Shown one piece after another: positions 31,180-64,000 of a DNA stretch of 64,000 bases. The number at the start of each line of letters is the position of its first letter. Within the stretch, counting starts at the first letter, position 1. The translations under genes were made by a program, and so were the position numbers. This DNA comes from Micromonospora sp. WMMD1128 (GTDB lineage Bacteria > Actinomycetota > Actinomycetes > Mycobacteriales > Micromonosporaceae), in contig NZ_CP114902.1 in NCBI RefSeq assembly GCF_027497235.1, forward strand, positions 3,051,501-3,115,500, given 5' to 3'. The notes under the pieces are model-generated. The model was not told where the DNA came from and made no database searches. It saw only the letters and a program-made list of their open reading frames with translations.

Positions 31180-34100
31180 TGTTCACTCCCGTGGTCCCAG
31201 TCGAGGCCCCAGACCCGGACGTTGCCCTGGTGGTCCCCGGTGACGATGGTGCGGAACGAGGCGTCGGCGCGGATCGCGTTCACCCGGACGGGGTGGCCGC
31301 GCAGCGACCGGATCCCGCGCCCGACGCGGAGGTCCCAGACGTCGACGGTCTCGTCGCCGCCGGCTCCCGTCACGGCGAACCGCCCGTCGGGCGACACCGC
31401 CATCTCCTCGATCCCGTGCAGGGGATGCTCCGCGCCGGCCCGCCCGTCGTACACCAGCTCGCCGGTTTCGGCGTTCCACACCACGAAGCCCGTCATTCCG
31501 GCGATGGCGGCGAGTCGGCGCGAGTCGGCGAACGCCAGGTCCGCCGACGAGCTGTGTTTGACGCCGTCGAGACGGTAGAGCGGACGCCTGCGGCCCGGCC
31601 GCCACGCGGTGAGGCGGCCCATCTCGGCCAGCAACAGCACGCCGGAGGCGAAGCGGATCTCCGTGTGCCGGTCGACCTGCGCGAAGGTTCGCAGCGGCTT
31701 CCCCGTGTCGATCGACCGGACCTCCACGCTGGTCGCGTCGCCGTCCCGCAGGTGCACGGCGATCGAATGGGACTTCTCGTCGGCCGTGACACCCGCGATG
31801 AGCCCGTGCCCGGTGCGGATCGTCGCGACGCGGGCCGCGGCGTCGAGTGACCACACCGTCGCCAGCCCGTACCCGAATCCGACCGTGACCAGGTCGCCGG
31901 AGACGTCGAGCGTCGTCTTCCCCTCGTCGTGGGGCTGGGCGCCGGCGACCTTGAACCGCGGCTCGGCCGTCACGGTGTCGTGGCACGCGACCGACCCGTC
32001 CGAATAGCCGATGATCAGGTCGCGTCCGCCCCGGGCGAAACGCAGGCTGGTGGCGGGGTTCCGCTTCTCGACCACGGAACCCACCTTCTGGAGCGTCTCC
32101 AGGTCGACGATCTCCACCTGGTCGATGTCGGTAGGAAAGGCGAACAGCCGCCCGGAGTCGCTGACGTCGAAGGCCCCGTGGGTGAGCATCACGTCGGACA
32201 GTTCCTGCTCCAACCAGATGCCGTGCAGGCCGGTGCGCTCCAGGTCCCGGCCCGCTGCCCGGGCGGCCCGGCGTAGTCGTGGATGGCGTTCGAAACCGGG
32301 AATCGCCCTGGCCTCGCGGATGGTCTCGGTGGCGCGCTGCCCCTCACCGGCCGCGATCATCCCGTCGATGCGCGCCATGACCTGGTCGAAGGCCCGTTCC
32401 TCGTGCGCGAGGGCGCCGACCGGGCGGGGCGGCGCGTACGACCAAGGGGCGAGATGTCCGGGCAGCGGCATGGGGAGGCGCGACAGCGAGGTCCGGTCGC
32501 GGAAACCGTCCCGCTCGGCGACCACGGCGTACCCGCAGTCGCCGCTGAACGTCGTCACCTCGCGATGGGAGCCGCGGTTCCAGTCCTTGGGGAAGGTGCG
32601 GACGCAGCGGCGGATGGCCAGTTCGAGGACCTGGAGGTCACCGCTGCCCGGGTCGAGCAGGGCCCAACCGGCCCGGCCGGAGACGCCGAGCACGTCGCAG
32701 CCGAGAAGCCAGGGGACCTCCCACCGTCGCGGCTCGTCCCACACCCGCATGTCCACGGTCATCATCGACCGGACGCCGAGCCGCAGGACGATCGACCCGT
32801 CCGTCGCCAGGGCGGTCCTCCGCTCCGGGTTCAACCCGTCGGGCGGCAGGTGCAAACCCCGCATCCTGGTACGACGCAGGGGCCACCACTGCTCCACCCG
32901 GTCATCCGCGTCGGGATGCCCCAGCGAGGCGGAGACGCACACCTCCGCCTCCGGGGCGAGAATCACCCGCGTGACACGCCCCTCGTGGGGCCGGATGTCG
33001 ACGACGGGCTCCCACCCGCCGGCGCGGAAGACCAGGACGCGGCCGTCTGCCGTACCCACCGCTGCGGAGCCGCCGTCGGGGCTGAGCGCCACGGCCGTTC
33101 CCCCGTCCAGCCGGCCTTCGAGTTCGGCGGACCCGTCGGTGAGGCGCCACCGCTCGACCACCGAGTCCTGGTAGCAGACGAGCACCCGCGCCCCGGCGTG
33201 GTCGATCGCGACGTCGACGGGCGTCCGGCCGGAATCGGCGAGTTCGGTGACCACGCGCCCCGCGATGGCGTCCCAGATCCGCACCCTGCCCGACGTCTCG
33301 GCCACCACCACGTGCGTCGCGTCGGCGTCGCTGGCCATCGCCGCGACCTCGCCGGTGAACTGCCCGAACACCTCGAGCGTGCCCCGGGGCGCCAACCGGG
33401 CGCAGCGGTCGCGCGCGGTCGCGATCTCGGGTGCGCCCGGATGCTTCCGGTCCGCCTCGGCCAGGTGCCGCGCCGCGAGGACGCCGTCGCCGCGTTCCAG
33501 GTGGACCATCGCGGCCAGGTAGTCCGCCTCCCAGGAGTCGCCGGTGGCGCGCAGCTCCGACAGCAGGGTCTCGTCGGTGACGAGGCCGTCGGCCCACCTG
33601 AGGAGCCCGTGGTTGTAGACCACGTGGACGTTGTGCGGGTCGATCGCCCTCGCCTGCTCGAACAGCTCGACCGCCCGGCTCTGCTCGCCGAGGTCCCACA
33701 GCGACAACGCCTTGTTCGACAAGCCGTCGGCCTTCAACGCCGGCGGGACCCGGTCGGAACGCGGGTAGGTGCCGCCCGCGCAGTCCGCGTACAGGCCGGC
33801 GAGGACGGCCTCCGCCTCGGCGGTGTCGCTGATCCGCGACCGGGGATCGCGCGCGAGGCAACCGGCCAGCAGGTCGCGCAGCGCCTGCGGGAGATCGGCG
33901 CGCAGCGCCGCGAGCGCGTCCGCGCCCTCGTGGCCCCACTCCCAGAGCCGACGCCCGTGCAACACCTCGATCACCGTCAACGCCCACGACCACATGTCGC
34001 TGGCCCGACCGATCCGGCCGTCCGGGTCGACCTGCTCGGGAGAGCAGTACTGCGGCGTGAACCCGCCGAGGGTCGCGTAGGCGGTCCCGGCGTCACCGGG

Positions 34101-34622
34101 CGCAGGCTCCGAGGCGTACGCCTTCGCCTTGGCGGTGCCGAAGTCGGTCACCCGCGCCGTCTCGCCGTCGTACATGATGTTGGAGGGTTTGATGTCCTGA
34201 TGGACCAGGCCCGCGGCGTGGGCGTGCCCGATGCCGCGCAGCGTCTGGATCGCGACGTCGAGGGCCGCCCGGAGGTCGCGGCAGCGACCCTCCCGCACCG
34301 CCGCGGTCAGGTCACCGCCCGCGATCCATTCCGCGAAGACCACCGGGTACGCGCCGACGCGCCGCACGTACGCGCACCCGACCACGTTCGGGTGCGGGCC
34401 GAGATCGGTCCAGGACTGCGCCTCCTGGGCGAGCAGGTCGAGGATCCCGGGCGACGCGGCCAGGTCGGGGCGTGGCGTCTTCACGGCCAGGTCGACATTC
34501 CAGGTGAGATGGTGGGCGCGGTACACGAAACCCATCCCGCCGGTCTCGACCACCTCGTCGATGCGGTACGTGTCGAGGACGGTCTCCCCCGGCCGCCACC
34601 GGATGACCTCCCCCGCGTCCAC
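31176..34622 (-). CDS. Ser/Thr protein kinase with TPR and WD40 beta-propeller regions
   Basis: This 1,148-residue protein has an N-terminal Hanks-type kinase (about residues 15-275): glycine loop GGMGFVY, lysine in LAVKTPRP, catalytic HQDIKPSN and DFGTAKA. The usual HRD is HQD, so it is a non-RD kinase without the standard activation-loop arginine contact. A TPR-like part follows (about 290-410, QSRAVELFEQARAIDPHN), then many degenerate WD40 blades to the end. No membrane segment is seen. The GTG start lies nine bases after a DUF7019-like gene. It is probably a sensor kinase of an unknown conflict or signalling system. Confidence 0.88.
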   Translation of the reverse strand: MDAGEVIRWRPGETVLDTYRIDEVVETGGMGFVYRAHHLTWNVDLAVKTPRPDLAASPGILDLLAQEAQSWTDLGPHPNVVGCAYVRRVGAYPVVFAEWIAGGDLTAAVREGRCRDLRAALDVAIQTLRGIGHAHAAGLVHQDIKPSNIMYDGETARVTDFGTAKAKAYASEPAPGDAGTAYATLGGFTPQYCSPEQVDPDGRIGRASDMWSWALTVIEVLHGRRLWEWGHEGADALAALRADLPQALRDLLAGCLARDPRSRISDTAEAEAVLAGLYADCAGGTYPRSDRVPPALKADGLSNKALSLWDLGEQSRAVELFEQARAIDPHNVHVVYNHGLLRWADGLVTDETLLSELRATGDSWEADYLAAMVHLERGDGVLAARHLAEADRKHPGAPEIATARDRCARLAPRGTLEVFGQFTGEVAAMASDADATHVVVAETSGRVRIWDAIAGRVVTELADSGRTPVDVAIDHAGARVLVCYQDSVVERWRLTDGSAELEGRLDGGTAVALSPDGGSAAVGTADGRVLVFRAGGWEPVVDIRPHEGRVTRVILAPEAEVCVSASLGHPDADDRVEQWWPLRRTRMRGLHLPPDGLNPERRTALATDGSIVLRLGVRSMMTVDMRVWDEPRRWEVPWLLGCDVLGVSGRAGWALLDPGSGDLQVLELAIRRCVRTFPKDWNRGSHREVTTFSGDCGYAVVAERDGFRDRTSLSRLPMPLPGHLAPWSYAPPRPVGALAHEERAFDQVMARIDGMIAAGEGQRATETIREARAIPGFERHPRLRRAARAAGRDLERTGLHGIWLEQELSDVMLTHGAFDVSDSGRLFAFPTDIDQVEIVDLETLQKVGSVVEKRNPATSLRFARGGRDLIIGYSDGSVACHDTVTAEPRFKVAGAQPHDEGKTTLDVSGDLVTVGFGYGLATVWSLDAAARVATIRTGHGLIAGVTADEKSHSIAVHLRDGDATSVEVRSIDTGKPLRTFAQVDRHTEIRFASGVLLLAEMGRLTAWRPGRRRPLYRLDGVKHSSSADLAFADSRRLAAIAGMTGFVVWNAETGELVYDGRAGAEHPLHGIEEMAVSPDGRFAVTGAGGDETVDVWDLRVGRGIRSLRGHPVRVNAIRADASFRTIVTGDHQGNVRVWGLDWDHGSEQ

Positions 34623-36219: not shown

Positions 36220-36363
36220 GCGGGTCCTCGACCGACGCCCGACACTCCTCCATTGTGGCAGGCCCGGCGAAGCCCGCAGGGTTGCGGCTCCGAGGTGATC
36301 CGCGAGAACTCATCAATCAGTTGGACGGCTACGCGTTTCTGTACGATTGAGGAGCAAACTGCG

Positions 36364-36747
36364 TCATCGCCGATCGGTCCCCGTCAGCTGGAACTCGTAA
36401 CGGTCCGCCTCGCGGGCGACCGCGCGGACGAGCCTCTGGAAGGCTTGCGCGGTCAGTCCGGCCTTGGGCGTCCAGCCGTGGGCGACCATCCGGCCTTCGC
36501 CGTCGACTCGGAATCCCACCATTCGGCTGTGCCGGTTCTTCTCCCACGCCTCGCGATAAAGGCGGTGCCACTGGCCGACGACATCGGCGCCGGCGACCAC
36601 GGCGGTGAGGAGGTATCCGTCCGGACTCTCTTGTATGCGTACGGAATGCGACCGGCCGCTGGCGAACGAGACGTTCACGTGCTGCCGCTTCGCCCGCATG
36701 TCATCGACCGAACACAGCCGATGCCAGTCATCGCGAATGCCGAACAT
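36364..36747 (-). CDS. Small hypothetical protein after the helicase gene
   Basis: This is an unrecognised 127-residue protein starting MFGIRDDWHRLCSVDD, with no signal or membrane segment. The ATG at 36747 lies 20 bases inside the end of the helicase gene and has GGAGCGGG upstream, so the two are co-translated. The longer frame to 36819 would overlap much more and lacks support. As the fourth gene of the PLD-helicase operon it may be an accessory subunit. Confidence 0.65.
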   Translation of the reverse strand: MFGIRDDWHRLCSVDDMRAKRQHVNVSFASGRSHSVRIQESPDGYLLTAVVAGADVVGQWHRLYREAWEKNRHSRMVGFRVDGEGRMVAHGWTPKAGLTAQAFQRLVRAVAREADRYEFQLTGTDRR

Positions 36748-39700
36748 CCCGCTCCAACTCCGTCCTGAACTCCTTGAGCAGGCGATCGCGTTCGGGAAGG
36801 TGCTCCCGTTCGAGCCCATCGGCGAGCGTCGCGACCCGCCGGATCAGCGCCGCGACCCGGGGCGGGTCGTGCTCCGGCGTGGTGAGTAGGACATCTTCCT
36901 CGACTGTGACGTCGTAGCTCCCGCCGCGGGACTCTACCGTGCCGAGCCGCGCCGGGATTCCGGCCGACCAACTCGCCAAGTCGTCCCACTGGTCCGAACT
37001 GTTGATCCGCCCGATGGGGCTCACACAGTGAACGAGCAGGTATGGGCCCTCCCGTTCGAGTTGCAGGCTGAAGGGCTGTTGCCGCCCGCTGTCGAAGACG
37101 ACCGTGCCGAGTAGTGTGCCCCGTCCTGGTTGGCTCCGCTCCCACTCGATCGCGAGGCCGGGTAGAGCCGCGCGTACCAGCGAGTTGAAGCGGTCGAGCT
37201 GCTGCCTGGCGATCGTCCCGTCCACGGCCAACGGCCGGTCCGGTCCGGTCAAGTGCTCTGGACGCACCGGGAAGGACGTTTGGAGCGGCCCGGCCGGCAG
37301 CGGGGGGACGCCCTCGTCGATGAGCGTTTCCCGGCTGACGTCGAGGTGGCCGTCGCCGGCCGCCGGCAGCGTCAGGCCTTCGTGCATGAGTCGGAGGAAA
37401 TCGTTCATCCTGCGCAGTACGCGACGAACCTGCAGGCGTTCGACTGTGTCGGTGAGGTGGGGGTAGTACACCTGCAGTAGGTCGTCACCGGTCGCCGAGC
37501 CGGTCAGGTTCGTCAGCCGGCGCTCGCTCTCGGATCGCACCCGGTCGACCCGTCCAATCCGCTGCTCGATGGCCGACGGGGTCCACGCGAGCCCGTAGTG
37601 GTAGACACGGGAGCAGAAGGTGTGCAGATCCTCGCCTTCCTGTAGGAGGTCGGTGCAGATCAACACGAGCGGATATCCGGGGAGTCGGAACTGCTGCACG
37701 TGCCGGTTGTTGACCCGCCCGGACATCCCGGCGACGGGTTCCTGCGCAGTGAAGAGCCGGCTGACGAGGCTGCGCGCCTCCCGCAGATCGCCACGCCGCG
37801 CATCGGGAAGATTGATGTCGAGCACCAGGTCGTGGTGCTCGGCCAAAGCCTTGAACTCGTCCACCGCCGACCAGTCCCGATCTCCGGTCGGAACCACTGC
37901 CTGTCGTTCGAGTTCGTCGAGGTAAGCGCCGATCAGGCCATCGGCCTCGATCGTGGCCGCCGGATCCAGGGTAGGCAGGTGATCGCTGACGACGGCGTAC
38001 AGATCGAGGAAGGGGTGCCCGAGACGGGCGGCGGCCGAAAGGATCTGTGCCCGGAGGTACTGTTCTCGGAACGATTCACCGAGGTTAGCCGGCGAGGGTT
38101 CCGGCCAGATCAGATTGCGCAACTCGGGCCGCTGCCGAAGCTCGGTGAAGAATGTGAGGGTCTCCAGAAGCATCGGATCGGCGTCGGCCGAGACGGCGCT
38201 CCGCTTCTCGGGGCGATACAGTTCGCGCCAGAGCAGCTCGGCACGTTCGCGGTACGGCCCCTCGTGATGAGCGAGTAGTTCGAGCGCGGCGGCCTGAACG
38301 GCGTCGTACCGAGCGCCGCGGGTCGACTGCTTCGCCTCGGTCAGATAGTGACGTGAGTGCTCGCGGACGAGCCGGTCGACCTTGTCGCGCTCCTTGCCGA
38401 GCGCGGCCGCCAACGAGTCTCCGACCTTTCCGGGGCGTGTGCCCAGAAGCGCCATCACGTGGTTGTCGTCGAAGAACGTGCCCAGCGGGCCGGCCTGGTT
38501 ACGGAACCTCGCCTGGATGGTCGCACCGCTGACGATGCCGGCGGGGCCGGTGCCGCGGAAGAACCACGCGAAGAAGGTCTCCGGCCCGCCGGCGTCGTCG
38601 TCCTCCCGAACCTGGTCGGCCGTCACGGCGGCGACCGACTCGCGCAGCGCCCGCTGCCGGCGGAACTCGTTGGCGGCGCCGTCGAACGCGGCCCGGTGCC
38701 GCTCGTTCAGCCGGCTCCGCAACCTGTCGACGAGCCAGTCGCTGTATTCGTCGTCCAGCTTGCGCTTGAGTTCGGAGACGGACGCCACGCGGCGGACGAA
38801 GACGAGCCCTTTGCGGCCATCGCGCCAAGAGGTGTCGAGCGCACGGACCACGGCGTCCATCTTCGGGTGCGGCAGTTCGCGACCGAACCGCCTGAAGTGG
38901 TCGCGGGCCAGGTCGTCAAGCATCGGTACGTCGATGCCCTGCCGCTCGACCGCTTCCGCGGCCTGCTCCGCGTCGTCGAAGTTCGCCTCCACTGTCTCGT
39001 CGGCGATGTCGTCGGAATCCTCGGTCGCAGCCACCTTCTTCGGCGCGCTGGTTTCGAGGAACGACTCGAACGACGCGAGCATCCCGACCTGGAAGCGGGT
39101 GCCGAACCGTTCATCGTCGAGCAGCTCGCTCACCTTCTTCTGAATCAGCGCTACAGTCAGCCGCTGCCGGTCGTCCGTGATCCGGATCGGTTCATCGTGC
39201 TCGGCAACTCCCCCTCCACGCCACTCCCGTCGGTAGAGGTTCTTGGTCAACCGCTGCCCGGAGACCTCCAGCGATGTCACCCGGCGGATCAGGAACTGTC
39301 CCGCAATATCCCGCCTCTGTTGCTCACCGGCGTCCGGGTCCCGTAGCAGCCGGAAGGGTTCGGCGAATCCGAAGACATCTAGCTGGTTCCACAGTTGCCG
39401 GTAGTCGTCATCCACTGGCGTCGCGGAGAGCAGCAGCACCTTGCCCGCGCGCCGGCCGTATTTCCTCCGCAGTCCCGGATCGAGGTCGTCCCGATCCCGG
39501 CCGAGCACGGTGGCGAGAACTCGGTTTCGGGACGACGACTGCGGGCCCCAGCCGTGCTTGAGGTTGTGCGCCTCGTCGACGATCACGAGATCGAAGTGCG
39601 GCAGCGCGGCGTTGACTGCCTGCGCGAACCGGTCTTTGATGACGTCCGCGTTGGCGCGCAGGTCGACCAGTTCCTCGGGAAGCCATGGCACCTGCTCACG

Positions 39701-40189
39701 CAGCCGGTCGCGCAGGTTGCGTCGCTGCTGCGCATCCCGTCGCATCGGGAGGCTGAAACTGGGGAGGCGGACGAAGAAGTCGCGGTCGGGGCCGACAGCG
39801 GTCTCCTCGAGTAATTGGATCAGGTCGCGGCAGTGTACGAGCGGACGCGCCGGCAGCCCACCCGGCATCCGTACCCGCAGGTCGTCGAGGCGCACGTTGT
39901 TCTTGACGAAGACACCCTGCTCCCGCCGCCATTTCTGCTGAATGTTCTGCCGTGGCGTGATGACGAGCACCCGCAGGTCCGGTGTGAAGTGGCGCAGCAG
40001 CGCGACGACGCCGAGGGCGACGTAGGTCTTGCCCATGCCGACCTCGTCGGCGAGGTACGCGACGTGATGGCGCTGCAGGATGTTGTGCAGGGCGACCGCC
40101 CCGTGGAGCTGGTCCCTCGCCCGCTGCGGGTTGCGGATCACCCGGTCGAAGTCCAGCAACTGCGCGGCGGTGTCGACACTGATCCTCAT
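36728..40189 (-). CDS. Large SNF2-type superfamily 2 helicase of a defence-like operon
   Basis: This 1,153-residue ATPase has all core motifs: Walker A DEVGMGKT (residues 48-55), DEAH box VDEAHNLKHG, motif III LLSATPVDD and motif VI QRIGRVDRV. A long insertion separates the two RecA-like lobes. It resembles the large helicases of DISARM (DrmD) and related restriction-like systems, which move along DNA. The ATG overlaps the stop of the PLD gene (ATGA). No nuclease motif is evident inside it, so cutting may come from its neighbours. Confidence 0.88.
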   Translation of the reverse strand: MRISVDTAAQLLDFDRVIRNPQRARDQLHGAVALHNILQRHHVAYLADEVGMGKTYVALGVVALLRHFTPDLRVLVITPRQNIQQKWRREQGVFVKNNVRLDDLRVRMPGGLPARPLVHCRDLIQLLEETAVGPDRDFFVRLPSFSLPMRRDAQQRRNLRDRLREQVPWLPEELVDLRANADVIKDRFAQAVNAALPHFDLVIVDEAHNLKHGWGPQSSSRNRVLATVLGRDRDDLDPGLRRKYGRRAGKVLLLSATPVDDDYRQLWNQLDVFGFAEPFRLLRDPDAGEQQRRDIAGQFLIRRVTSLEVSGQRLTKNLYRREWRGGGVAEHDEPIRITDDRQRLTVALIQKKVSELLDDERFGTRFQVGMLASFESFLETSAPKKVAATEDSDDIADETVEANFDDAEQAAEAVERQGIDVPMLDDLARDHFRRFGRELPHPKMDAVVRALDTSWRDGRKGLVFVRRVASVSELKRKLDDEYSDWLVDRLRSRLNERHRAAFDGAANEFRRQRALRESVAAVTADQVREDDDAGGPETFFAWFFRGTGPAGIVSGATIQARFRNQAGPLGTFFDDNHVMALLGTRPGKVGDSLAAALGKERDKVDRLVREHSRHYLTEAKQSTRGARYDAVQAAALELLAHHEGPYRERAELLWRELYRPEKRSAVSADADPMLLETLTFFTELRQRPELRNLIWPEPSPANLGESFREQYLRAQILSAAARLGHPFLDLYAVVSDHLPTLDPAATIEADGLIGAYLDELERQAVVPTGDRDWSAVDEFKALAEHHDLVLDINLPDARRGDLREARSLVSRLFTAQEPVAGMSGRVNNRHVQQFRLPGYPLVLICTDLLQEGEDLHTFCSRVYHYGLAWTPSAIEQRIGRVDRVRSESERRLTNLTGSATGDDLLQVYYPHLTDTVERLQVRRVLRRMNDFLRLMHEGLTLPAAGDGHLDVSRETLIDEGVPPLPAGPLQTSFPVRPEHLTGPDRPLAVDGTIARQQLDRFNSLVRAALPGLAIEWERSQPGRGTLLGTVVFDSGRQQPFSLQLEREGPYLLVHCVSPIGRINSSDQWDDLASWSAGIPARLGTVESRGGSYDVTVEEDVLLTTPEHDPPRVAALIRRVATLADGLEREHLPERDRLLKEFRTELERDVRHSR

Positions 40190-42186
40190 GCTGGCACCGC
40201 CTCCGTCTTGAGGAAGCGGGGTTCGTACCAGTCGAGGAACTCGGCCATCTCGGCGTCGTTCCGCGCTACAAGTTGGTTCCGTAGGACTGCTCGCACGGCG
40301 AGCGCCTGTTCCAGCCGAAAGACCCCGCTCGGATCCGACTCCCAGAACGCCGGGAAGCCGTCGAGTACGTCGTCGGCGAGCTGTTGCGCGCAGAGCACCA
40401 TGAGGTACCGCTCCAACGGGTCTCCCGCGGAGTCGTCCGCCACCTGCTCGACGAGGACGGGCAGGGAATCGTACTTGGCACCGAACATCCGGAACCGAGC
40501 CTCCTCGACGCGGCCCTCGTCGAGGGCCTTGCGCACCGCGCGACGCAGCGACGCGAACCCGTGGAAGATCCCGGCGAATCGATCGAAAATCGTGTCGACG
40601 GGCTTGACCGGAACGGACTCCACGGCCAGATCCGCCCCGCTGCCGGGCAGCTTGCCGCCATGCTGGGCAAGGTAGGCGTTCCGCTGCTCGGCCGTGAGCA
40701 TCGACCAGTAACGCAGGATGTCGGCCGGCGTCAGGTCAAGCAGGATCGATGGCCGGTGCGCCATGCCGGTCTCGTGGATCAGAACGATTCCGCGCTGATC
40801 GCCGACGACGGCGGTGAGGAAGCTGGTCTCGCGGAGTCGCTCGCGCAGAATCGCCGCGTCGTCGGCGGCGAGGGCTGTCCAGATGGCGGGCTCCAGGCGG
40901 CCGATCTCGAAGAGGTGTACGCCCCGGTCGTACACCTCGATTCGCGGGCTGTCGCCGGCACCGTCCCAGAGAACCTCGGCCTGGCCGGACGCCCAGTCGA
41001 ACCGCGCCAGCAGCGGCACGTAGCCCTGATCGACGGCGTCGTCCTCGCCGACCGGTTGTGCGAACGGTGGCGGCTCCTCGATTTTCTCCAGCCAGAACCT
41101 CGGGCGCCGATCGGTGGTCACCTCCGACAGCATCCCGGTCTCGACGTTGCCACCGCCCGAGTGCGCCGGGTTGGTCAGGTTGAACGACCCCACGAGGGTG
41201 ACTTCCCAGTCCTCGGCGAAGAAGCGGTACACCTTCGCATGCACGGTCCGGCTTGTCGCTCCCGCCGCCTGCTTGCCGCCGCGCGCGAGGACCGCCCTGG
41301 GTAGCCGTCCCCACTCCCCGCCTCGCTCGCGTACCCAGTCGTATAGCTCTGGACGGCACCGCGCCACACCGCCCTCCTCGGGAAGCAGCACGCGCCACTT
41401 GCTCGGCTGAAAGCGGTCGATCAGGCTCTTCAGCGGCGCCGAGGCGTCCGCGTCGTCGAGGTACGGGGACAGGACTTCCAGATTCACGCCATACAGCCGC
41501 TGGCCGGCGATCTCGTCGAGTTGATCGACGAGGGCCATCGCTCCGCGCCGACCGTTGTAGAGGAAGTGGGGGTGCAGCCGATGGTTCGCCGAGCGGTGCA
41601 CGATCGGTTGTACGGTGCGAAGTAGACCGCGAATGTCGTCCAGGGCGATGTGGGACTCGAAATTCCTGGCCATCCTTCGCACATGTTCGAGGAACCGCTG
41701 GATCTCCGGGGCAGTGCGCGACCGGCCGTGCTCGCCGATCTCCTCCAGGTGGGCGCATTCGACGTTCTCCCACCAGCCCGCCTGCGTCAGGTTCGCCGAC
41801 CCGGTGAGCACCACCAGCGACCGCTCCTGGGTCGACGGATCGCGCACGAGAATGATCGCGTTCTTCGGATGGAAGTAGCCGGTGCGGGGTCGGACCGGGA
41901 TTCGGCGTACGTCCAGGCAGGCTGTTCCGTCCCCCGTCACGATCGCACCGGGGTCGTAGTAGACGGCGGCCCGGCCGGCGAGCGGTCGCAGCGCCTCCTC
42001 GAGCTGGACGCGCCGGATCTGCGGGTCCTGGTGCAGTTGAACGTCGAAGAGAGCCGGCAGGATCTCGCGCTCGAAGAAGCCGGGGTCGAAGCGGAAGGTG
42101 CAGAACACCGCGGCCAGCACCTCGCGACCCTTGATCTGCTCACGAAGTGCCTCGGTGAGCACCGCCCGGGGAATGCCCTCGCTCAC
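40186..42186 (-). CDS. Phospholipase D-like nuclease-fold protein
   Basis: This 666-residue protein has two PLD-type active-site halves: YFHPKNAIIL with GSANLT downstream, and TVHAKVYRFF with GSFNLTNPA. Both keep the HxK histidine and lysine and the Ser/Asn element, so an active phosphodiesterase or DNA end-processing site can form. PLD-like proteins occur with helicases in DISARM (DrmC) and other defence loci. The GTG at 42186 overlaps the upstream stop (GTGA). The C-terminal 200 residues match no domain I know. Confidence 0.85.
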   Translation of the reverse strand: MSEGIPRAVLTEALREQIKGREVLAAVFCTFRFDPGFFEREILPALFDVQLHQDPQIRRVQLEEALRPLAGRAAVYYDPGAIVTGDGTACLDVRRIPVRPRTGYFHPKNAIILVRDPSTQERSLVVLTGSANLTQAGWWENVECAHLEEIGEHGRSRTAPEIQRFLEHVRRMARNFESHIALDDIRGLLRTVQPIVHRSANHRLHPHFLYNGRRGAMALVDQLDEIAGQRLYGVNLEVLSPYLDDADASAPLKSLIDRFQPSKWRVLLPEEGGVARCRPELYDWVRERGGEWGRLPRAVLARGGKQAAGATSRTVHAKVYRFFAEDWEVTLVGSFNLTNPAHSGGGNVETGMLSEVTTDRRPRFWLEKIEEPPPFAQPVGEDDAVDQGYVPLLARFDWASGQAEVLWDGAGDSPRIEVYDRGVHLFEIGRLEPAIWTALAADDAAILRERLRETSFLTAVVGDQRGIVLIHETGMAHRPSILLDLTPADILRYWSMLTAEQRNAYLAQHGGKLPGSGADLAVESVPVKPVDTIFDRFAGIFHGFASLRRAVRKALDEGRVEEARFRMFGAKYDSLPVLVEQVADDSAGDPLERYLMVLCAQQLADDVLDGFPAFWESDPSGVFRLEQALAVRAVLRNQLVARNDAEMAEFLDWYEPRFLKTEAVPA

Positions 42187-43454
42187 GCCGCACCCTTCCC
42201 GATTGCCCTCAGTATGGACACCAGAGACGGGATGAAGTACGGGTATCGCCACAGCTCCCGGACCTCGTCACCGGTGGGCAGATCGGCCGGCTCATCCCGG
42301 AACCGCACCCGCAGGTGGTCCTGGTCGGTCACCTCCAGCCAGGCGAGCGCCGCACCACGCTCCTGCATCGCCGTGGCGTTACGCTCGGCCAAGGCCCTGA
42401 TGAGCTCCGGGAATTCACCGTGGGCGAGCGCCTTGGCGATGCGTGGCCACTCCTGGCCGGGCAGAGCGGACGCCGCAAGCGGATCAATCGATTCAAGGCG
42501 GTCCCCCCAGGACGATCGGAGGTCGGCCACGACGTGGTCGAGGCCAGCACCATCCCGTCCGAGCAGGTAGCCGAAGAGTATGGAGGCCGGCGCGAGCACG
42601 GATTCGCAGGCGATGATCCGGCGCACCAGGTCGGCGATGTCACTCCAGCCGCGCGACTCTGCGTCGTCGGCGATTGATGTCAGGTACGGCCGTGAGGGGC
42701 GGATCGAGTTGGGGGATCTGGTTTCGAGCAGGACGGCGAGTCTCGCCTGCCGCCCCTTGGTGAGATCACCCGGTCCTCCCTCGACGAGGTGGTGACGGTA
42801 GAACTCGATCTCCCGCTGCGACATTTCCGGCGTGAAAATGCTGGCCACCGCCCCACACTTTGTGCTTTCGCCCAGGTCGAACACAACCCGCTCCCGCCGC
42901 AGTTCTCGTACGAGAGAGCGAACATCTCGGCCCCACCCGGATTCCAATCGCGGCAGGTAGACATCGTCGACGAAGGCGCTCGTCTCAGGGGTGAGCCGCA
43001 CGGGGCTTCCCGGCGTGACGAGCCCGGACACCCGGGCCGGCGCGGTGTAGTTGCCGAGCAATCCGTCCGTTCGCTGGTTGCTCAGGATCTGGTGCTCCGG
43101 CTGGGCAGACAGATACACCTTGCCGCCGTTGCTGCCGGCCTTCGCTGCTCGCGCGGCGATCCGCTGCCGCCCGAAGAAACCCCGATGGTCGTGCACGACG
43201 TGCCGCACGTACGCCGCCATCTGCTCCCAGATCAGGAAGGCGGTCGTGGTGTTGCCCAATTCGTCTGGAGACGCGAGTTCGGCCAGGCGCAGCCCAACGA
43301 GCAAGGTGGTGAAGTCCGTCAGCGAGTCCGTGACCGTGGTGAGATTGCCGATGAGCGGGCGTCCCGCGGCTGACCAGACCGCCTGCGCACCGAGCCCGTC
43401 GCGGGATCCCTTGATGCGTGCACGCGGATCGAGGTCAGTCAGGAAGAGCACCAC
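42183..43454 (-). CDS. Unknown protein, first gene of the PLD-helicase operon
   Basis: This is an unrecognised soluble protein of about 423 residues. GTG 43454 is chosen because AGAAGGA ends eight bases upstream; a TTG at 43490 is also open. The N-terminal FLTDLDPRARIKGSRDGLG and NLTTVTDSLTDFTTLLVGL are distinctive. There are no membrane segments. It is translationally coupled to the PLD gene. In this position it could be a specificity, sensing or scaffold subunit, but nothing in the sequence proves that. Confidence 0.75.
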   Translation of the reverse strand: MVLFLTDLDPRARIKGSRDGLGAQAVWSAAGRPLIGNLTTVTDSLTDFTTLLVGLRLAELASPDELGNTTTAFLIWEQMAAYVRHVVHDHRGFFGRQRIAARAAKAGSNGGKVYLSAQPEHQILSNQRTDGLLGNYTAPARVSGLVTPGSPVRLTPETSAFVDDVYLPRLESGWGRDVRSLVRELRRERVVFDLGESTKCGAVASIFTPEMSQREIEFYRHHLVEGGPGDLTKGRQARLAVLLETRSPNSIRPSRPYLTSIADDAESRGWSDIADLVRRIIACESVLAPASILFGYLLGRDGAGLDHVVADLRSSWGDRLESIDPLAASALPGQEWPRIAKALAHGEFPELIRALAERNATAMQERGAALAWLEVTDQDHLRVRFRDEPADLPTGDEVRELWRYPYFIPSLVSILRAIGKGAA

Positions 43455-43627
43455 GGGCGCAATCCTTCTCAACTGGATTTCGACCGCCAATCGTCCATAC
43501 CGGCACAGATTTCGGGCGTTCCATCCTCGCCTGGTGCCATCATTAGGTTGTCATCGGTAAATCAGCGCGTCGAACGATGACGTGGTGGACGATATGTCGG
43601 CCCGCTGGTGCTCAGTAGGTTGGGCGG

Positions 43628-44383
43628 ATGTTGACGGCGGGGATCGACCTTGCGGCGGAGGACGCCAACACGGCGATGGCCTGGATCCGGTGGACTGCGA
43701 CCGGAGCCGTACTGGAGGAGCTGACAATCGGGGCGGGCGACGACCAACTCCTGCGGGCCGCTTCGGCGACGGACAAGGTCGGGATCGACTGTCCGCTGGG
43801 CTGGCCCGAGCCGTTCGTGGAGTTCGTCATCGCCCACCATCGCGGAGATCTCATCGCCCCTACCGACCTGGTCGGGCGCGACTGGCGCAGACGCTTGGCT
43901 TGGCGTCAGACCGACGCGGTGACCCACAGGGTGACCGGTCGCCCGCCACTGAGCGTGGCCGCGGACCGCATCGCACACACGGCGATGCGATGTGCCGCCC
44001 TGCTGGCGCGGCTCGCCGCGGGCGGGCAACCCGTGGACCGCAGCGGCGGCGGAACAGTTGTCGAGGTCTACCCGGCGGCGTCACTCAAGAAGTGGGGATT
44101 GCCCAACCGGGGATACAAGGGACGACAGAACGGAAGCGCGCTGAACGACTTGATGGACCGGCTGATGGATGCTGCGCCGTGGCTGCAACTCGCCGACTTT
44201 GAGGCAGCGTGCCGGAGTAGCGATCACGCAGTCGACGCGGTCGTGGCCGCACTGACCGCTCGTGCGGCTGCCACCGGCCAAGCCACCCGCCCCGGCTCCG
44301 CCGACCTGGCCGCCGCCTCCACCGAGGGCTGGATCGCCGTACCGACCACGCCACTTGCCAGCCTCATCAAGGCAAGCGCGTGA
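43628..44383 (+). CDS. DUF429 family protein (predicted RNase H-like fold)
   Basis: This 251-residue protein of the DUF429 family is predicted to adopt an RNase H-like nuclease fold. It has an N-terminal acidic strand (TAGIDLAAED), KVGIDCPLGWP and the closing SDHAVDAVVAALTARAA. TVVEVYPAASLKKWGL is a family signature. The role is unknown. It is divergent from the PLD-helicase operon and precedes the nuclease-methyltransferase gene by 184 bases, so it may be part of the same defence locus or simply inserted there. Confidence 0.82.
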   Translation: MLTAGIDLAAEDANTAMAWIRWTATGAVLEELTIGAGDDQLLRAASATDKVGIDCPLGWPEPFVEFVIAHHRGDLIAPTDLVGRDWRRRLAWRQTDAVTHRVTGRPPLSVAADRIAHTAMRCAALLARLAAGGQPVDRSGGGTVVEVYPAASLKKWGLPNRGYKGRQNGSALNDLMDRLMDAAPWLQLADFEAACRSSDHAVDAVVAALTARAAATGQATRPGSADLAAASTEGWIAVPTTPLASLIKASA

Positions 44384-44567
44384 CGCCGATGCCGCCTGAC
44401 CAGGGAAGCGGCCTCCTGCACGTTCGATCGAGGCGGTGAGTGCGACCCTACCGGCTACCGGATCCGTCGGACTGGACCGCATAGGGTCACCGACTGTGAG
44501 CTGTCCATCATCTGACAGTCATTCGCAATCGCTTGGCTTCGGCGAGTTCCAATATCCACACTGATGT

Positions 44568-47500
44568 ATGGCCCGCTCGGACGGTACGCCAGACGTAAGC
44601 CCAAGCCGCCGCCCGTCGCCCCGGCCGCAGGTACGCGCGCCCGACGGCTTCCCTCCGACACTGCAGCCCCTGCTGGCGCGAATCGCCGACCGGCGCGCCG
44701 CCCGCAGCGAGGCGACCCTGCAGGCCGACATCCGCCAGCTGCTGCTGACCGGCGATTTCGGGCTCTCCGACTCCCACCTCGACGACGTCGACCTCGAGGC
44801 CCCGGCCGGCGGTGGCCGGCGCATCGACATCGAGGTCGGATACACCATCATCGAGGTCAAGCGACGGCTGCAGGCCGGCCGCTCCCTGCTGGAGGCTGAG
44901 CGCCAACTCGACGGCTACGTGCGATCGCGGAGCATGGAGAGCGGCCAGCGGTACGTCGGCATCCTCACCGACGGCGCCACCTGGCAGGCGTACCAGTTGG
45001 CCGGCGACGCGCTGGCCCTCATCGACACCCACGCGGTCGCTGCCACCCGCCCCGACGGTCTGGCCCTCTTCTACTGGCTGGAGGGCGTGCTGGCGACGAG
45101 CCGGCGGGTCCGCCCGGCTCCCGCCGAGGTGGCTCGCCGCCTGGGCGCGCAAAGCACCTCCCACAAGCTGGATCGTGCCGCGCTCGCCGCCCTCTACGCC
45201 GAGCACGAGCACCTGCCGACCGTGGAGTTGAAGCGGAAGCTGTGGGCTGAGCTGCTGGACAGCGCCCTGGGCACCCAGTTCGTCGACGACCCGGACCTGT
45301 TCGTCGAGCACACCCTGCTGATGAACAGCGCATACATCATCGCGCACCTGGTTGTCGGCATCGACGCCCTGGAGTTGCAGCCGCAGGATCTCATCACTGG
45401 GCAACGGTTCGACCAGGCCCGCATCCTGGGCGTGGTCGAGCACGACTTCTTCGGCTGGACCACCGAGGTGCCCGGCGGTCGCGAGTTCATCCAGGGGCTC
45501 ACCCGGCGACTGGCGCGATTCGACTGGTTGCGGGCCGACCACGACATCCTCAAGGTGCTGTACGAGTCGATGATCGGGCCGGAGACGCGCAAGCGGATGG
45601 GCGAGTACTACACACCCGACTGGCTCGCCGAGCACCTCGTCGATACCGTCGTCACCGATCCGCTGCGGCAACGTGTGCTGGATCCCTCCTGCGGCTCCGG
45701 CACCTTCCTCTTCCACGCGGTCCGCCGGTATCTCGCCGCCGCCGAGGCGGCGGACCTGCCGCTGGATGCCGCACTGACGCAGCTCACGCATCAGGTGATC
45801 GGCGTCGACCTGCACCCGGTCGCCGTGGCGCTCGCCCGCGTGACCTATCTGCTCGCCATCGGCCACCGGCGGCTGACCGACCAGCGGGGTGCCATCACCA
45901 TTCCGGTCTATCTCGGCGACAGCATGCAGTGGCGGGAGCGCCTCGATCTGTTCACGGAGGAGCACGTACGAATCAGTGCGGGCTACAACGCGAACGACGC
46001 CGAGGAGTGGCTCCGGTTTCCGAACAAGCTGCTCAACGAGCCGAGCCGCTTCGACCAGATCGTCTCCGGACTCGCCGGCATCGCGGCCAAGCCGCGGGAC
46101 CCGGACAACCCGCCGTCGCTGGCGGCCTTCTTCCATCACCTCAAGATCGAGCCGGACGACCAGCCCATGATCCGTGGCACCTTCGAGGCGATGTGCCGGC
46201 TGCACGACGAGGGCCGCGACCACATCTGGAGCTACTACCTGCGCAACCTGGCCCGGCCGGTCTGGCTGGCCATGAGGAACAACCGGGTGGATGTTCTCAT
46301 CGGCAACCCACCGTGGCTCTCGTACCGTCACATGCCGGCCGGCATGCAGGTGATGTTCAAGAAGCTCTGCGGTGATCGCGGGCTGTGGCGTGGGAGTCAG
46401 TTCGCGACGCAGCAGGACCTCTCCGCACTCTTCGTCGCCCGAACCATCCAGCAGTATCTTCGCGTCGGTGGCGCGTTCGCCTTCGTCCTGCCCAACGCCG
46501 TGCTGGACCGCGAGCACTTCGAGGCCTTCCGCAACGGGCGGTACACGGACGAGGCCGAGCCGACAGATGTTGCCTTCACCGGTTCCTGGGACCTGCGCCG
46601 CCTGCGTCCCCACCCATTCCCGCGCGGAGCCAGTGTCGTCTTCGGCAACAAGGCGGCCACGGGCAGCCCGCGCGGCCTTCCCTCGGTCACCGAGCTGTGG
46701 ACGGGACACCTCGGCAACGACGCCAGGAGCTGGGCACAGGCCGCGCCGTCCATTCACCGGGAACCTGCCCCGCTGGGAAGGTCGCCCATCGCCGAGTCAC
46801 CGTACAAACCACATGTGCACAACGGCGCGACGATCTTTCCCAAGATTCTGTTCTTCGTCGAGACAGATTCCGGTGGGCGACTGGGTCTCGGCGTGGGCCG
46901 TCACGCCGTTCGCTCGGCCCGCAGCATCATGGAGAATCCCCCGTGGAAGGATCTGCCCGCTCTCGAAGGCGTCGTCGAGAGCGAGTTCATCCGGCCGGTG
47001 CTGCTCGGCGAGACGCTGCTGCCGTACCGGATCTTGCCGGCAAAGCAGGCGGTGCTGCCGCTCGACGGTGCCACGCTGATGACCGGGCCGGACTCTCGAC
47101 TCGACTACTACTTCGGTCTGGCCGAATGGTGGCGGACGGCGGAAGCCACCTGGGAAGCGCATCGCAGCAGCCCACGTCTCACCCTGGGTGAGCAACTCGA
47201 CTTCCGACGCAAGCTGACCTCGCAGCTCCCCGCACCGCCCCTTCGGTTGGCCTACGCGGCCTCCGGGATGCACGTCGCCGCTGCCATCGTCGACGACCCG
47301 GCCGCGATCATCGAGCACGCGCTCTACTACTGCGCGATCGACAGCCGGGCGGAGGGTCACTATCTCGGCGCGATCCTGAACAGCCCGGCTCTCACCACGC
47401 TCGCCCGCCCCCTGATGTCCTACAGCAAGGACGAACGGCACATCGACAAACACGTCTGGAAACTACCCATTCCCCGGTACGACGACGCGGACCGGACACA

Positions 47501-47666
47501 CCGACGGCTCGCCGAACTCGGCCAGGACCAGTGTCAGTTCGTGGCTGGACTGGACCTTGAGGAGGGGCGGTACTTCGTGACCCTGCGTCGGCGGGTCCGA
47601 GCCGCACTCGCCGGCCATCCGACCACCGCGGAGATCGAAGCCGCGGTCATGGAGATGCTCGCCTGA
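44568..47666 (+). CDS. Eco57I-like nuclease-adenine methyltransferase fusion
   Basis: This 1,032-residue protein looks like a type IIG-style restriction-modification enzyme. The N-terminal PD-(D/E)xK-like site is RIDIEVGYTIIEVKR, with Asp87, Glu96 and Lys98. The central N6-adenine methyltransferase has motif I LDPSCGSGTF (about residue 370) and motif IV NPPW (about residue 578). The C-terminal 350 residues probably form the target-recognition region. No clear ribosome site precedes ATG 44568. It is close to and divergent from the PLD-helicase operon, so it may supply methylation for that system, or it may work alone. Confidence 0.85.
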   Translation: MARSDGTPDVSPSRRPSPRPQVRAPDGFPPTLQPLLARIADRRAARSEATLQADIRQLLLTGDFGLSDSHLDDVDLEAPAGGGRRIDIEVGYTIIEVKRRLQAGRSLLEAERQLDGYVRSRSMESGQRYVGILTDGATWQAYQLAGDALALIDTHAVAATRPDGLALFYWLEGVLATSRRVRPAPAEVARRLGAQSTSHKLDRAALAALYAEHEHLPTVELKRKLWAELLDSALGTQFVDDPDLFVEHTLLMNSAYIIAHLVVGIDALELQPQDLITGQRFDQARILGVVEHDFFGWTTEVPGGREFIQGLTRRLARFDWLRADHDILKVLYESMIGPETRKRMGEYYTPDWLAEHLVDTVVTDPLRQRVLDPSCGSGTFLFHAVRRYLAAAEAADLPLDAALTQLTHQVIGVDLHPVAVALARVTYLLAIGHRRLTDQRGAITIPVYLGDSMQWRERLDLFTEEHVRISAGYNANDAEEWLRFPNKLLNEPSRFDQIVSGLAGIAAKPRDPDNPPSLAAFFHHLKIEPDDQPMIRGTFEAMCRLHDEGRDHIWSYYLRNLARPVWLAMRNNRVDVLIGNPPWLSYRHMPAGMQVMFKKLCGDRGLWRGSQFATQQDLSALFVARTIQQYLRVGGAFAFVLPNAVLDREHFEAFRNGRYTDEAEPTDVAFTGSWDLRRLRPHPFPRGASVVFGNKAATGSPRGLPSVTELWTGHLGNDARSWAQAAPSIHREPAPLGRSPIAESPYKPHVHNGATIFPKILFFVETDSGGRLGLGVGRHAVRSARSIMENPPWKDLPALEGVVESEFIRPVLLGETLLPYRILPAKQAVLPLDGATLMTGPDSRLDYYFGLAEWWRTAEATWEAHRSSPRLTLGEQLDFRRKLTSQLPAPPLRLAYAASGMHVAAAIVDDPAAIIEHALYYCAIDSRAEGHYLGAILNSPALTTLARPLMSYSKDERHIDKHVWKLPIPRYDDADRTHRRLAELGQDQCQFVAGLDLEEGRYFVTLRRRVRAALAGHPTTAEIEAAVMEMLA

Positions 47667-48572: not shown

Positions 48573-48872
48573 ATGCCAAGGACCGTGCAGATCCGCGTTT
48601 ACACCGTGCGGGCTGGGCTGTTGGACGAGTGGGTGGACAAGTGGCAGCGCCTGGTCGTGCCGTTGCGCCGTGATCTGGGCTTCGAGATCCACGGCTCATG
48701 GAAGGACCATGGGCGCAGCCAGCACATCTGGGTGATCTCCTACGACGGGCCCGAGTCGTTCGAGGAGGCGAACGCCGCCTACTGGGCCTCGGAGCGCCGC
48801 AAGACGCTCGGCCTGGACCCGGGCGACTACCTGGTGGGTGAGGAGACCCGCGAGGTCGAGCAGACGCTATGA
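48573..48872 (+). CDS. NIPSNAP-family protein
   Basis: This 99-residue ferredoxin-like alpha-beta barrel protein has the NIPSNAP pattern: QIRVYTVRAGLLDEWVDKWQRLVVPLRRDLGFEIHGSW in segments, then VWVIS-like HIWVISYDG. The family is small and stress-related, with no defined enzyme activity in bacteria. ATG 48573 is chosen; a GTG at 48564 is also open, but AAGGGTGG would then be too near. The end overlaps the convergent STAND gene by six bases. Confidence 0.82.
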   Translation: MPRTVQIRVYTVRAGLLDEWVDKWQRLVVPLRRDLGFEIHGSWKDHGRSQHIWVISYDGPESFEEANAAYWASERRKTLGLDPGDYLVGEETREVEQTL

Positions 48873-51800
48873 GCCCGGATCGGCCGGTAGCAGGTGGGCC
48901 CGCCGCTCGTCCTCGCTGAGCGCACGGAACACCCGCAAACGTGCCGCTGCCGTCAACTCGTCCACGTCGACGGAGTCCGCCCAGACGCGGGCGGTGCCGT
49001 CAGCCGAGCCGGTGGCGACCTGTCGCCCGTCCGGCAGCCATACCATGCTGGTCACGCCATCGCGGTGCACGCCGATCACCTCGCCCTGCTCGTCGTCGGG
49101 GCTCCAGAGCCGCACGGTCCGGTCGTCGGAACCGGAGGCGAGGCGCTGGCCGCCGGGTGCCCACGCAACCACACGCACCCGCTTCTCGTGGCCGGTCAGC
49201 ACCCTCGGCCGATCGGCGCCGGTGAGATCCCACACCCGGAGGGTCCAGTCGGCTGAGCAGGAGGCGAGCCGGCGTTCGTCCGGCGCCCAACTGAGCCCGT
49301 CCACGTAGTTCTGGTGGCCGGCGTGGACCGAGGAGTCACCCGGCTGCTCGATGTCCCAGACCCGGACGGTGCGGTCGTCGGAACCTGAGGCGAGGTAGCG
49401 ACCACTCGGCGACCAGGCCAGCGCGCCCACCCAGTCCGCGTGTCCGCGCAGGACGCCGGCGGCGCTGCGCGTAGGGACGTCCCACAACCGTATCGAGTTG
49501 TCCTTGCAGCCGGCCGCCAGCCGGGAGCCGTCCGGTGACCAGGCGAGCGACTCCGCTTCCTCGCCGAAGCGCACGTCCCCGTCCGCACCGACCAAGTGGA
49601 CCGAGCCATCTCGCAGTGCCACAGCCAGCACGTCAGCCGCCGGTGAACAGGTGAGCGCCACGACCGGCTCGGGCCATGTCGTCACGGCGGCCGTTCCGTC
49701 CGGCTGCCACCGCCGTACGCTGCCGTCGGCGCCGCCGGTCACGATCTTCGCGGTCCGATCCAGCGCGAGAGCGGTGACGGGCCCCTCGTGCCCGGTGAGC
49801 AGCTGGCTTTCGGCCCCGCGTGGCTGCACCGCCCAGACCCGGGCGGTGCCGTCACCGGAGCCGCTGACCACCCGTCGTCCAGATGGGGACATCGCGACGG
49901 ACCAGGCGACCTGGGTGTGTCCGCGCAGCTCGGCGACCTCACGCAACCGCTGGACGTTCCAGGCGCGGATGCTGCCGTCGCCGCTGGCGAACACCAGCGT
50001 GCGACCGTCCGGGGACCAGGCGACCGACCACACCGGTGCCCCGTGACCGCCGATCACGTGCCGAGTCTCGCCGGTCGCCACGTCCCAGATGCGGACGGTC
50101 TGGTCGCCGGACCCGGTGACGATTCGCCGGCCGTCCGGTGACCAGGCGACGGCCTCGACGAAGTCACCGTGCCCGGTCAGCCTCCGCTCGGGACGACCAG
50201 CGGCCAGGTCCCAGACGATGACGGACCGGTCGTGCGAAGCCGAGGCCAGCGTTCGGGAATCGGGGGCGAAGCGCAGGCCCCACACGTCGCCCTCGTGGCC
50301 GACCAGGTGTCTGGTGAGCTGCCAGGCCGAGGTGTCCCACACCCGCACGGTTCGATCCCGGCTTGATCCGGCAAGGCAGCGGCCATCTGGTGACCAGGCG
50401 ACGCCGCGTGCCACGTCGCCGCAGGGCAGCACTGCGACCGTCGTACCCGTCGTGGCCTCCCACACCCGGATGGTGCCGTCCCGGGAGGCGGTGGCGAGCC
50501 GGGTGGCGTCGGGGGACCAGTCGACAGCCTCCACCATCCCGGTGTGCCCGCGCAGCGCCCGGACGACCGTGCCGGTGTCGGCGTGCCAGATCCGTGCGGT
50601 GCCGTCCCGGGAGCCCGTCGCCAACTGCGCGCCGTCGGGTGACCAGGCAACGCCACGCACGGCGTCGGTGTGACCGGCGAGCACCGCCTCGGCGTGGCTG
50701 AACGCCAGCGACGCCATCAACGCCTGTCGGGCGACCGGTGTGGGCGGACATTCGCGCAGGGCCGCTGATGTCAGCAGCACCGCCAGCTCCGGATATCGGT
50801 CCACGTTGCCGAGCGCGAACTGGCCGATCGCTTCGGAGACCCGGTGCAGGAACGCGATGTCCCGGCTGCGGGACGCGGTCACCAGGGCACGGGCGGCGGG
50901 GCTGTCCTGGCCGGCCGACTCCATCGCCTCCAGCCACTGCCCGGCCAGTTGAAGCCGTTCTCCGGTGAGCAGGTAGTCGGCGTTGCGCCCGGCGTGCGCC
51001 CAGTCCGCCGCCCACCGTTCCAGTTCCGTGCGCCGCCGGAGCTGCTCCGAACGCGCCTCCACCTGCTGTCGCAGCGGTGCCCACCGGCGGAACAACGCCT
51101 CGTGGGCCACCTGCGCGTACGGTTCACCGTCGAGCACATCGGTGGTGAGCAGCCTCGCGTCGGTGAAGGCGACGATCACCCGCCGCTGGTCAGCGGAGAA
51201 CTCACGCAACGGCACCCGACGCCTTGTCGGTTCGATGCCCTCCATCGCCACCAGACGAAGCAGGGTGGCCAGAACCTCGTCGGTGCTGCTGTCGCCGCGC
51301 AAATCTGCCATCACACTGTCTGCCTGGCGGCCCAGCGCCCCCGCGACGCCGCCGACCGCCCGGTATGCCTGGCGGGTGGCCGTCCGGCCCGACCCGGCTG
51401 CCCGGTGCAGCTCCTGAAGCAGGTACGCCAGCAGCGGCAACGCGTCCGGCGTGGCCGCGTCGGCGATGATCTCCTCGACGAGGCCGTCCTCGAAGCGCAT
51501 ACCGGCGAGCTGTGCGGGCTGCTCCACCACCGCGACGAGGTCCGCCGGCCGCATGGTGCCCAGCGTCACCGGATTTGCGAACAGGTCCGGACGTGGACCC
51601 GCGAGCAGACCGGCGAGGAACTCGACGCGGAGCGTCGCGACAACCCAGAGCCGCCGATCGGTGTCGAGCGCGGTCGCGACCTGCGCCAGGAACGTGGTCT
51701 GCTCCGCGGCGCTCGACAGCGTGACCAGTTCCTCAAGCTGGTCGAGAATCAGCAGGACGCGCCCGTGCCGATGACCCGTTCGGGTCCGCCAGGCCGCCAG

Positions 51801-56817: not shown

Positions 56818-56864
56818 TGCCTCTCCCCTCGGCGCCCCGTCAGCTACTTTCGGCAAGCCGCCGA

Positions 56865-63901: not shown

Positions 63902-64000
63902 CAGGTTCCTTTCGATTGCCTTAAGGCGAGCAGTATGCCTGCCGCCCTGCATCGTCGTACTCGCCCACTCGGCCGAGTTGATCAACCGACTGTCAGCGTG

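What the first reader, a model, noticed from the sequence alone, without database searches (positions are those of the whole stretch)
36364..47666. PLD-helicase operon facing a nuclease-methyltransferase: DISARM-like but incomplete
A four-gene operon (unknown 423 aa, PLD-like 666 aa, SNF2-type helicase 1,153 aa, small 127 aa; overlaps at each joint) is divergent from DUF429 and an Eco57I-like fusion with ExK and NPPW motifs. DISARM combines a SNF2 helicase, PLD and methylase with DrmA/DrmB (DUF1998), which are absent here. The unknown first gene and small last gene could be the defining parts of a separate system.
Basis: partly seen in the sequence, partly recalled or inferred. Interest (0 to 1): 0.85.

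Follow-up and report, generated by a model that had tools for sequence, protein, structure and literature searches.

The report
Nuclease-helicase defence cassette with chaperone-fold subunit
A soil actinobacterium (Micromonospora) carries a mobile gene cassette, probably an anti-virus nuclease machine distantly related to the Azaca system, with a small extra subunit that has the fold of a secretion chaperone and an RNase H-like neighbour gene that is also found beside Azaca.

Summary
The four-gene operon is real and is not DISARM. It is a distant relative of two PLD-helicase systems, Azaca and PADLOC's candidate PDC-M27. Order A-B-C-D recurs in six other genomes of the family and in one phage-like metagenomic contig. 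The window shares with two genomes a block from the stop of D to the stop of DUF429 (36363-44380), with unrelated flanks: the divergent DUF429 gene belongs to the mobile unit, the type IIG restriction enzyme does not.

Best reading: a DNA-targeting translocase-nuclease complex gated by a chaperone-fold subunit. Function is inferred; nothing was assayed.

The parts
42183..43454 (-). gene A, 423 aa: PDC-M27A-like, mostly helical; possible winged-helix DNA reader
   Evidence: 52 of 52 aligned homologues match PDC-M27A at E<=0.1, best 6.8e-24; AF2 model pLDDT 91.4
40186..42186 (-). gene B, 666 aa: PLD-family (HKD-type) nuclease with two HxK motifs
   Evidence: ZacB 4.6e-22, PDC-M27B 8e-12; HPK at 128 and HAK...GSFN at 338-358 of ORF P0003; both HxK kept in 8 of 8 distinct proteins
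36728..40189 (-). gene C, 1153 aa: RapA/DrmD/ZacC-type SNF2 translocase with a C-terminal domain at about 965-1150
   Evidence: PDC-M27C 3.2e-77, ZacC 4.5e-21; invariant helicase motifs
36364..36747 (-). gene D, 127 aa: type III secretion chaperone/YbjN-fold subunit
43628..44383 (+). DUF429 gene, 251 aa: RNase H-like partner, inside the mobile block in 3 genomes
   Evidence: Pfam 2.6e-28; the block shared with G141 and G864 ends at its stop; next to A or ZacA in 12 of 13 copies examined
43455..43627 (.). 173-bp divergent intergenic region between A and DUF429, presumed to hold both promoters
   Evidence: gene coordinates; promoter activity not tested

Best explanation
The block 36364-44383 is a mobile anti-virus cassette of the PLD-helicase kind, a branch beside PDC-M27 and Azaca. 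Shown by sequence or model: a PLD-family protein with two HxK motifs (B), a RapA/DrmD-like SNF2 helicase with intact ATPase motifs (C), a chaperone-fold protein tied to the helicase C-terminus by natural fusions (D), a mostly helical protein A, and an RNase H-like DUF429 partner. Inferred: A contacts DNA and forms the targeting complex with B and C; C translocates along DNA, B cuts it, and D clamps onto C (or a peptide of a partner) and sets when the complex may fire; DUF429 trims or removes nucleic acid. No methyltransferase travels with the cassette, so self/non-self is unlikely to rest on a resident modification; a structural or replication signal, or a phage protein, is the likelier trigger.
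For: Profile matches to two PLD-helicase defence families rather than DISARM. Order A-B-C-D in the window and in five of the seven other loci of the first set, in G864 and in a phage-like contig. Cassette boundaries with unrelated flanks. Patchy presence: A in 8 of 300 family genomes, strong C in 5 of 101 genus genomes. D fold and C-D fusions. HxK motifs in 8 of 8 distinct B proteins. DUF429 beside A and beside ZacA. DUF429 and DUF2779 placed in the RNase H-like superfamily (PMC3985635, passages).
Confidence: 0.6

Rival explanations
1. It is simply a divergent Azaca system: A is a remote ZacA, B is ZacB, C is ZacC, and DUF429 and D are accessories.
For: ZacB 4.6e-22 and ZacC 4.5e-21 matches; same gene order; DUF429 neighbour in both; an extended A-ZacA profile comparison scores 32.4, collinear over 349 columns, against 11.7-21.4 for 12 control comparisons.
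Against: hhalign probability 9% and 1.8% in the smaller comparison; global mode aligned nothing (score 0.8); A gave no ZacA match at E<=1 and 1 of 52 relatives did at 0.017; C fits PDC-M27C far better; the D profile finds nothing in the Azaca stretches at E<=1.
Confidence: 0.25
2. A DISARM or Dpd relative that lost its other genes.
For: C matches DrmD and DpdE at 51-54 bits in PADLOC and 67.6-75.1 bits in NCBIfam; B weakly matches DrmC.
Against: NCBIfam DrmD scores 67.6 against a cutoff of 610, DpdE 75.1 against 500, DrmC 25.4 against 133; no DUF1998 in the six proteins; better matches elsewhere; the unit recurs without such genes inside it.
Confidence: 0.04
3. A modification-guided restriction system in which the IIG enzyme protects self-DNA and the PLD-helicase complex is the extra nuclease.
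For: The genes face each other across DUF429 in the window.
Against: The 8.03-kb block shared with two genomes ends at DUF429; no P0005 relative in the other 18 stretches searched.
Confidence: 0.05
4. A DNA repair module or a barrier to plasmids and transformation rather than anti-phage defence.
For: RapA-like and RNase H-fold enzymes also serve other DNA and RNA work (recalled); DR1245, a YbjN-fold protein, partners the SSB-like DdrB (PMC3575483, abstract).
Against: Patchy occurrence, cassette mobility, and neighbouring transposases and defence-type genes fit defence better; plasmid exclusion would still be defence.
Confidence: 0.08

Closest known systems
PDC-M27 (PADLOC candidate; profiles A, B and C seen here)
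   Same: Order unknown - PLD - SNF2 helicase; A, B and C all match its profiles; Rhodoferax and Vibrio plasmid copies are recognisable relatives.
   Different: Those copies score 571-605 (A), 729-805 (B) and 1206-1288 (C) bits against 26, 43 and 259 here; their helicase is about 870 aa against 1153; no D found there at E<=1.
Azaca (ZacA-ZacB-ZacC)
   Same: Unknown - PLD - helicase order; B and C match ZacB and ZacC; in Micromonospora most copies examined have a DUF429 neighbour.
   Different: A not matched by the ZacA profile at E<=1; no D found; DUF429 is upstream on the same strand there, divergent here.
DISARM
   Same: SNF2-type helicase and PLD protein.
   Different: No DrmA/DrmB and no methylase in the unit; far below curated cutoffs.
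YbjN / type III secretion chaperone / TY-Chap superfamily
   Same: D has its fold and its Pfam signature. TY-Chap domains were reported in ADP-ribose-linked conflict systems (PMC9503650, passages).
   Different: That paper's main text does not contain the terms phospholipase, HKD, SWI2 or SNF2.
Hachiman (HamAB nuclease-helicase)
   Same: Nuclease plus helicase logic with the helicase as sensor (PMC12278908, abstract start in search listing).
   Different: Homology not tested here; extra subunits in the window.

Membership tests
DISARM | DrmA/DrmB with DUF1998 in the locus (definition recalled) | tested here: not met
   no DUF1998 among the six proteins in Pfam nor in the 9 flanking frames; the PADLOC DrmA match touches only residues 842-890 of C as best stretch
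DISARM | DrmD-class helicase above the curated cutoff | tested here: not met
   67.6 bits against 610
DISARM | DNA methylase that travels with the unit | tested here: not met
   IIG gene outside the block shared with six other loci
Azaca | ZacA (DUF6361; that Pfam label is recalled) | tested here: not met
   no ZacA profile match at E<=1; 1 of 52 relatives at 0.017; remote kinship not excluded
Azaca | ZacB PLD protein | tested here: inconclusive
   4.6e-22 over residues 28-373; no PADLOC cutoff shown
Azaca | ZacC helicase | tested here: inconclusive
   4.5e-21, weaker than PDC-M27C
PDC-M27 | PDC-M27A | tested here: inconclusive
   26.4 bits, residues 354-429 only, though 52 of 52 aligned relatives match at E<=0.1
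PDC-M27 | PDC-M27B | tested here: inconclusive
   42.6 bits, below ZacB
PDC-M27 | PDC-M27C | tested here: met
   258.7 bits, E 3.2e-77, in two stretches; no PADLOC cutoff shown
YbjN / type III secretion chaperone superfamily (gene D) | sequence signature PF10722 | tested here: met
   16 of 16 relatives at E<=0.1, best 8.5e-7; the window's own copy is below the curated cutoff, 18 against 22 bits
YbjN / type III secretion chaperone superfamily (gene D) | fold | tested here: met
YbjN / type III secretion chaperone superfamily (gene D) | chaperone or peptide binding | not testable with these tools
   needs binding assays
anti-phage defence system | protects cells from phage | not testable with these tools
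   needs infection assays

The most novel reading that the evidence does not exclude
A PLD-helicase immune machine controlled by a secretion-chaperone-fold subunit: D (and perhaps a second, diverged copy of the same fold at the end of C) acts as a peptide clamp that senses a phage protein or an unfolded partner and releases the translocase-nuclease. A swappable RNase H-like partner (DUF429 or DUF2779) is a shared further enzymatic arm of Azaca, PDC-M27 and this branch.
Probability: 0.25. Interest if true: 0.78.

Novelty: new variant of a known kind. Interest (0 to 1): 0.56.

Why it matters
Azaca was listed among systems of unknown mechanism in 2023 (PMC10482375, passage), and none of the four papers listed for PDC-M27 or the candidate term contains the name PDC-M27. 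A further subunit with a readable fold, fused to the helicase in some relatives, and an RNase H-like gene found beside two system types give concrete handles on how PLD-helicase systems work. They also suggest that the three-gene definitions are incomplete for part of the family.

Tried and rejected

D versus C's C-terminal domain: the comparisons were spoiled because fused D residues were inside the C alignment, and were discarded. The clean ones score 33.1 and 27.6 against 10.0-20.0 for 16 slices of C and 9.6 for the reversed alignment. Against it, Pfam shows no YbjN match in the 37 helicases among the families listed; Pfam also missed the fused D of P0138 at E<=0.1, so that scan is insensitive. 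Suggestive only.

PDB sequence searches: none for B at E<=1, RapA for C (E 8.8e-5 to 1.2e-4), only weak matches (best E 0.12 or higher) for the A, ZacA and D profiles. Rfam and tRNA searches of the window: none. Phylum search with A: 1 of 396, the own genome. Genome-contig scan: 1 locus, on a contig of the same length as G241's. First Azaca paper search: the 20 listed were irrelevant. DefenseFinder and PADLOC's own rule sets could not be run. The contig-length match (11 of 15) is a proxy read by eye. The G854 DUF429 fragment was not examined. DUF2779 was not sought systematically. What G279 carries after A was looked at only by Pfam on four frames.

Full report
Setting. The window is bases 3,051,501-3,115,500 of a 6.8-Mb, one-contig genome; the closest named protein relatives are Micromonospora. 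The cassette genes A-D have 67.3% G+C against 71.1% for the window.

What is there. Four minus-strand genes overlap: A (423 aa), B (666), C (1153), D (127). Divergent from A, across 173 bp, is DUF429 (251 aa), followed by a type IIG restriction-methylation enzyme (1032 aa). B is a PLD-family protein with two HxK motifs. In 8 distinct B proteins both HxK are kept; the second GSxN is kept in all 8, the first in 3. C has SNF2/RapA-type helicase motifs, invariant in 37 aligned sequences. A has no Pfam family at E<=1.

Which system. PADLOC profiles give for C PDC-M27C 258.7 bits, ZacC 73.2, DrmD 54.2; for B ZacB 76.6, PDC-M27B 42.6; for A PDC-M27A 26.4; for D nothing at E<=1. NCBIfam DISARM and Dpd models are missed by a wide margin. 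PDC-M27 copies on Rhodoferax and Vibrio plasmids score 571-605, 729-805 and 1206-1288 bits, have a helicase of about 870 aa, and show no D at E<=1. The window therefore sits on a separate branch, though 52 of 52 aligned relatives of A still match PDC-M27A at E<=0.1.

Recurrence. A was found in 8 of 300 family genomes and D in 7 of 300, one of the latter weak. Of the eight stretches, six carry A-B-C-D (the window; G141, G150, G241; G068 with C and D in one frame; G031 with A and C in pieces) and two have A only (G279, G176). G864 adds another. Two IMG/VR contigs, 99.9% identical over 14.3 kb and counted once, carry A-B-C-D (38% identity for A, 49-51% for C; C is in two frames in one of them). 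So D was present in 8 of 8 distinct loci with the long helicase whose surroundings I read. Of 15 other D homologues on contigs of at least 15 kb, 11 share their contig length with a listed A or C homologue (a proxy).

Boundaries. The window matches G141 over 36363-44380 (83.4%) and G864 over 36363-44378 (81.2%), i.e. from D's stop to DUF429's stop. G241, G150, G068 and G031 match only A-D. Against the nine DUF429-ZacA stretches it matches only within DUF429, apart from one 67% stretch at 2719-3054. Among the A-D loci themselves similarity also stops with the cassette. The IIG gene is outside in every comparison.

DUF429. It occurs in 14 of 101 genus genomes. I read the surroundings of 13: three copies adjoin A (window, G141, G864); nine adjoin ZacA (G207, G868, G859, G249, G213, G858; in two pieces G191; partial G003; only 24 residues of ZacA in G883); one adjoins neither (G241 contig 32, itself interrupted). 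In G858 DUF429 and ZacA lie in one 668-residue open frame. The unit DUF429-ZacA-ZacB-ZacC also has sharp edges in most pairs; G207-G859 and G191-G883 share more, and a few short flank pieces recur. Of 10 genomes in the genus with a strong ZacA match (E<=3.8e-50), 8 have DUF429. Against generality: none of 6 genomes outside the genus with strong ZacA shows DUF429 within 1.5 kb, and four A-D cassettes lack it. DUF429 and DUF2779 were both placed in the RNase H-like superfamily; the same paper says that DUF429's conserved context suggests it is not mobile, which differs from what is seen here (PMC3985635, passages). A DUF2779 gene ends 2 bp before the presumed GTG start of A in the phage-like contig and lies two genes upstream of A in Rhodoferax.

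Mechanism, with steps marked. Shown by sequence or model: the PLD, helicase, chaperone-fold and RNase H-like parts, cassette mobility, C-D linkage. Inferred: complex formation, DNA targeting by A, gating by D, cleavage by B, and the trigger. The lack of a travelling methylase argues against modification-based discrimination.

Literature. Azaca with phage and defense gave 12 papers; I saw the passages naming Azaca in PMC10952713, PMC10482375 and PMC12278908, none with a mechanism. Searches for PDC-M27, DUF6361 with phage (none), DUF429 and YbjN with defence-type terms listed no title or abstract describing D or DUF429 in these systems; I did not open most of the listed papers, and most subscription papers are not held. 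In PMC12458937 and PMC12839542 (passages), on other helicase systems, the word Azaca does not occur.

Verdict. Real, not DISARM, a new variant of the PLD-helicase kind with a chaperone-fold subunit and an RNase H-like partner that I found described nowhere in those searches.

Noticed in passing
44568-47666 (+): Type IIG restriction-methylation enzyme (PADLOC REase_MTase_IIG 9.8e-75) beside but outside the mobile cassette.
   Followed up: yes
L041 3381-16237: IMG/VR contig with tail-sheath TIM-barrel and glucosaminidase genes directly before DUF2779-A-B-C-D: a PLD-helicase cassette apparently carried by a phage or prophage.
   Followed up: partly
L057 8554-10557 (-): DUF429 and ZacA in one open frame of 668 residues in one Micromonospora genome.
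   Followed up: partly
61943-63985 (-): Type I restriction methyltransferase (PADLOC MTase_I 917.9 bits); G+C falls to 60% at 60-62 kb.
   Followed up: no
55195-56856 (-): Frame with PD-T4-6-type kinase match (316 bits), next to one matching PDC-S14 (46 bits); may be ordinary Ser/Thr kinase signalling.
   Followed up: no
48867-52385 (-): nSTAND1 NTPase with many WD40 repeats.
   Followed up: no
31176-34622 (-): Protein kinase domain with WD40-type repeats.
   Followed up: no
L020 8397-11011 (+): DUF3323/DUF2399 protein and an AAA_12/UvrD_C_2 protein upstream of the cassette in G150; may belong to another defence system.
   Followed up: no
L019 18676-18912 (+): Second, partial D-like fragment downstream of the complete cassette in G141.
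   Followed up: no
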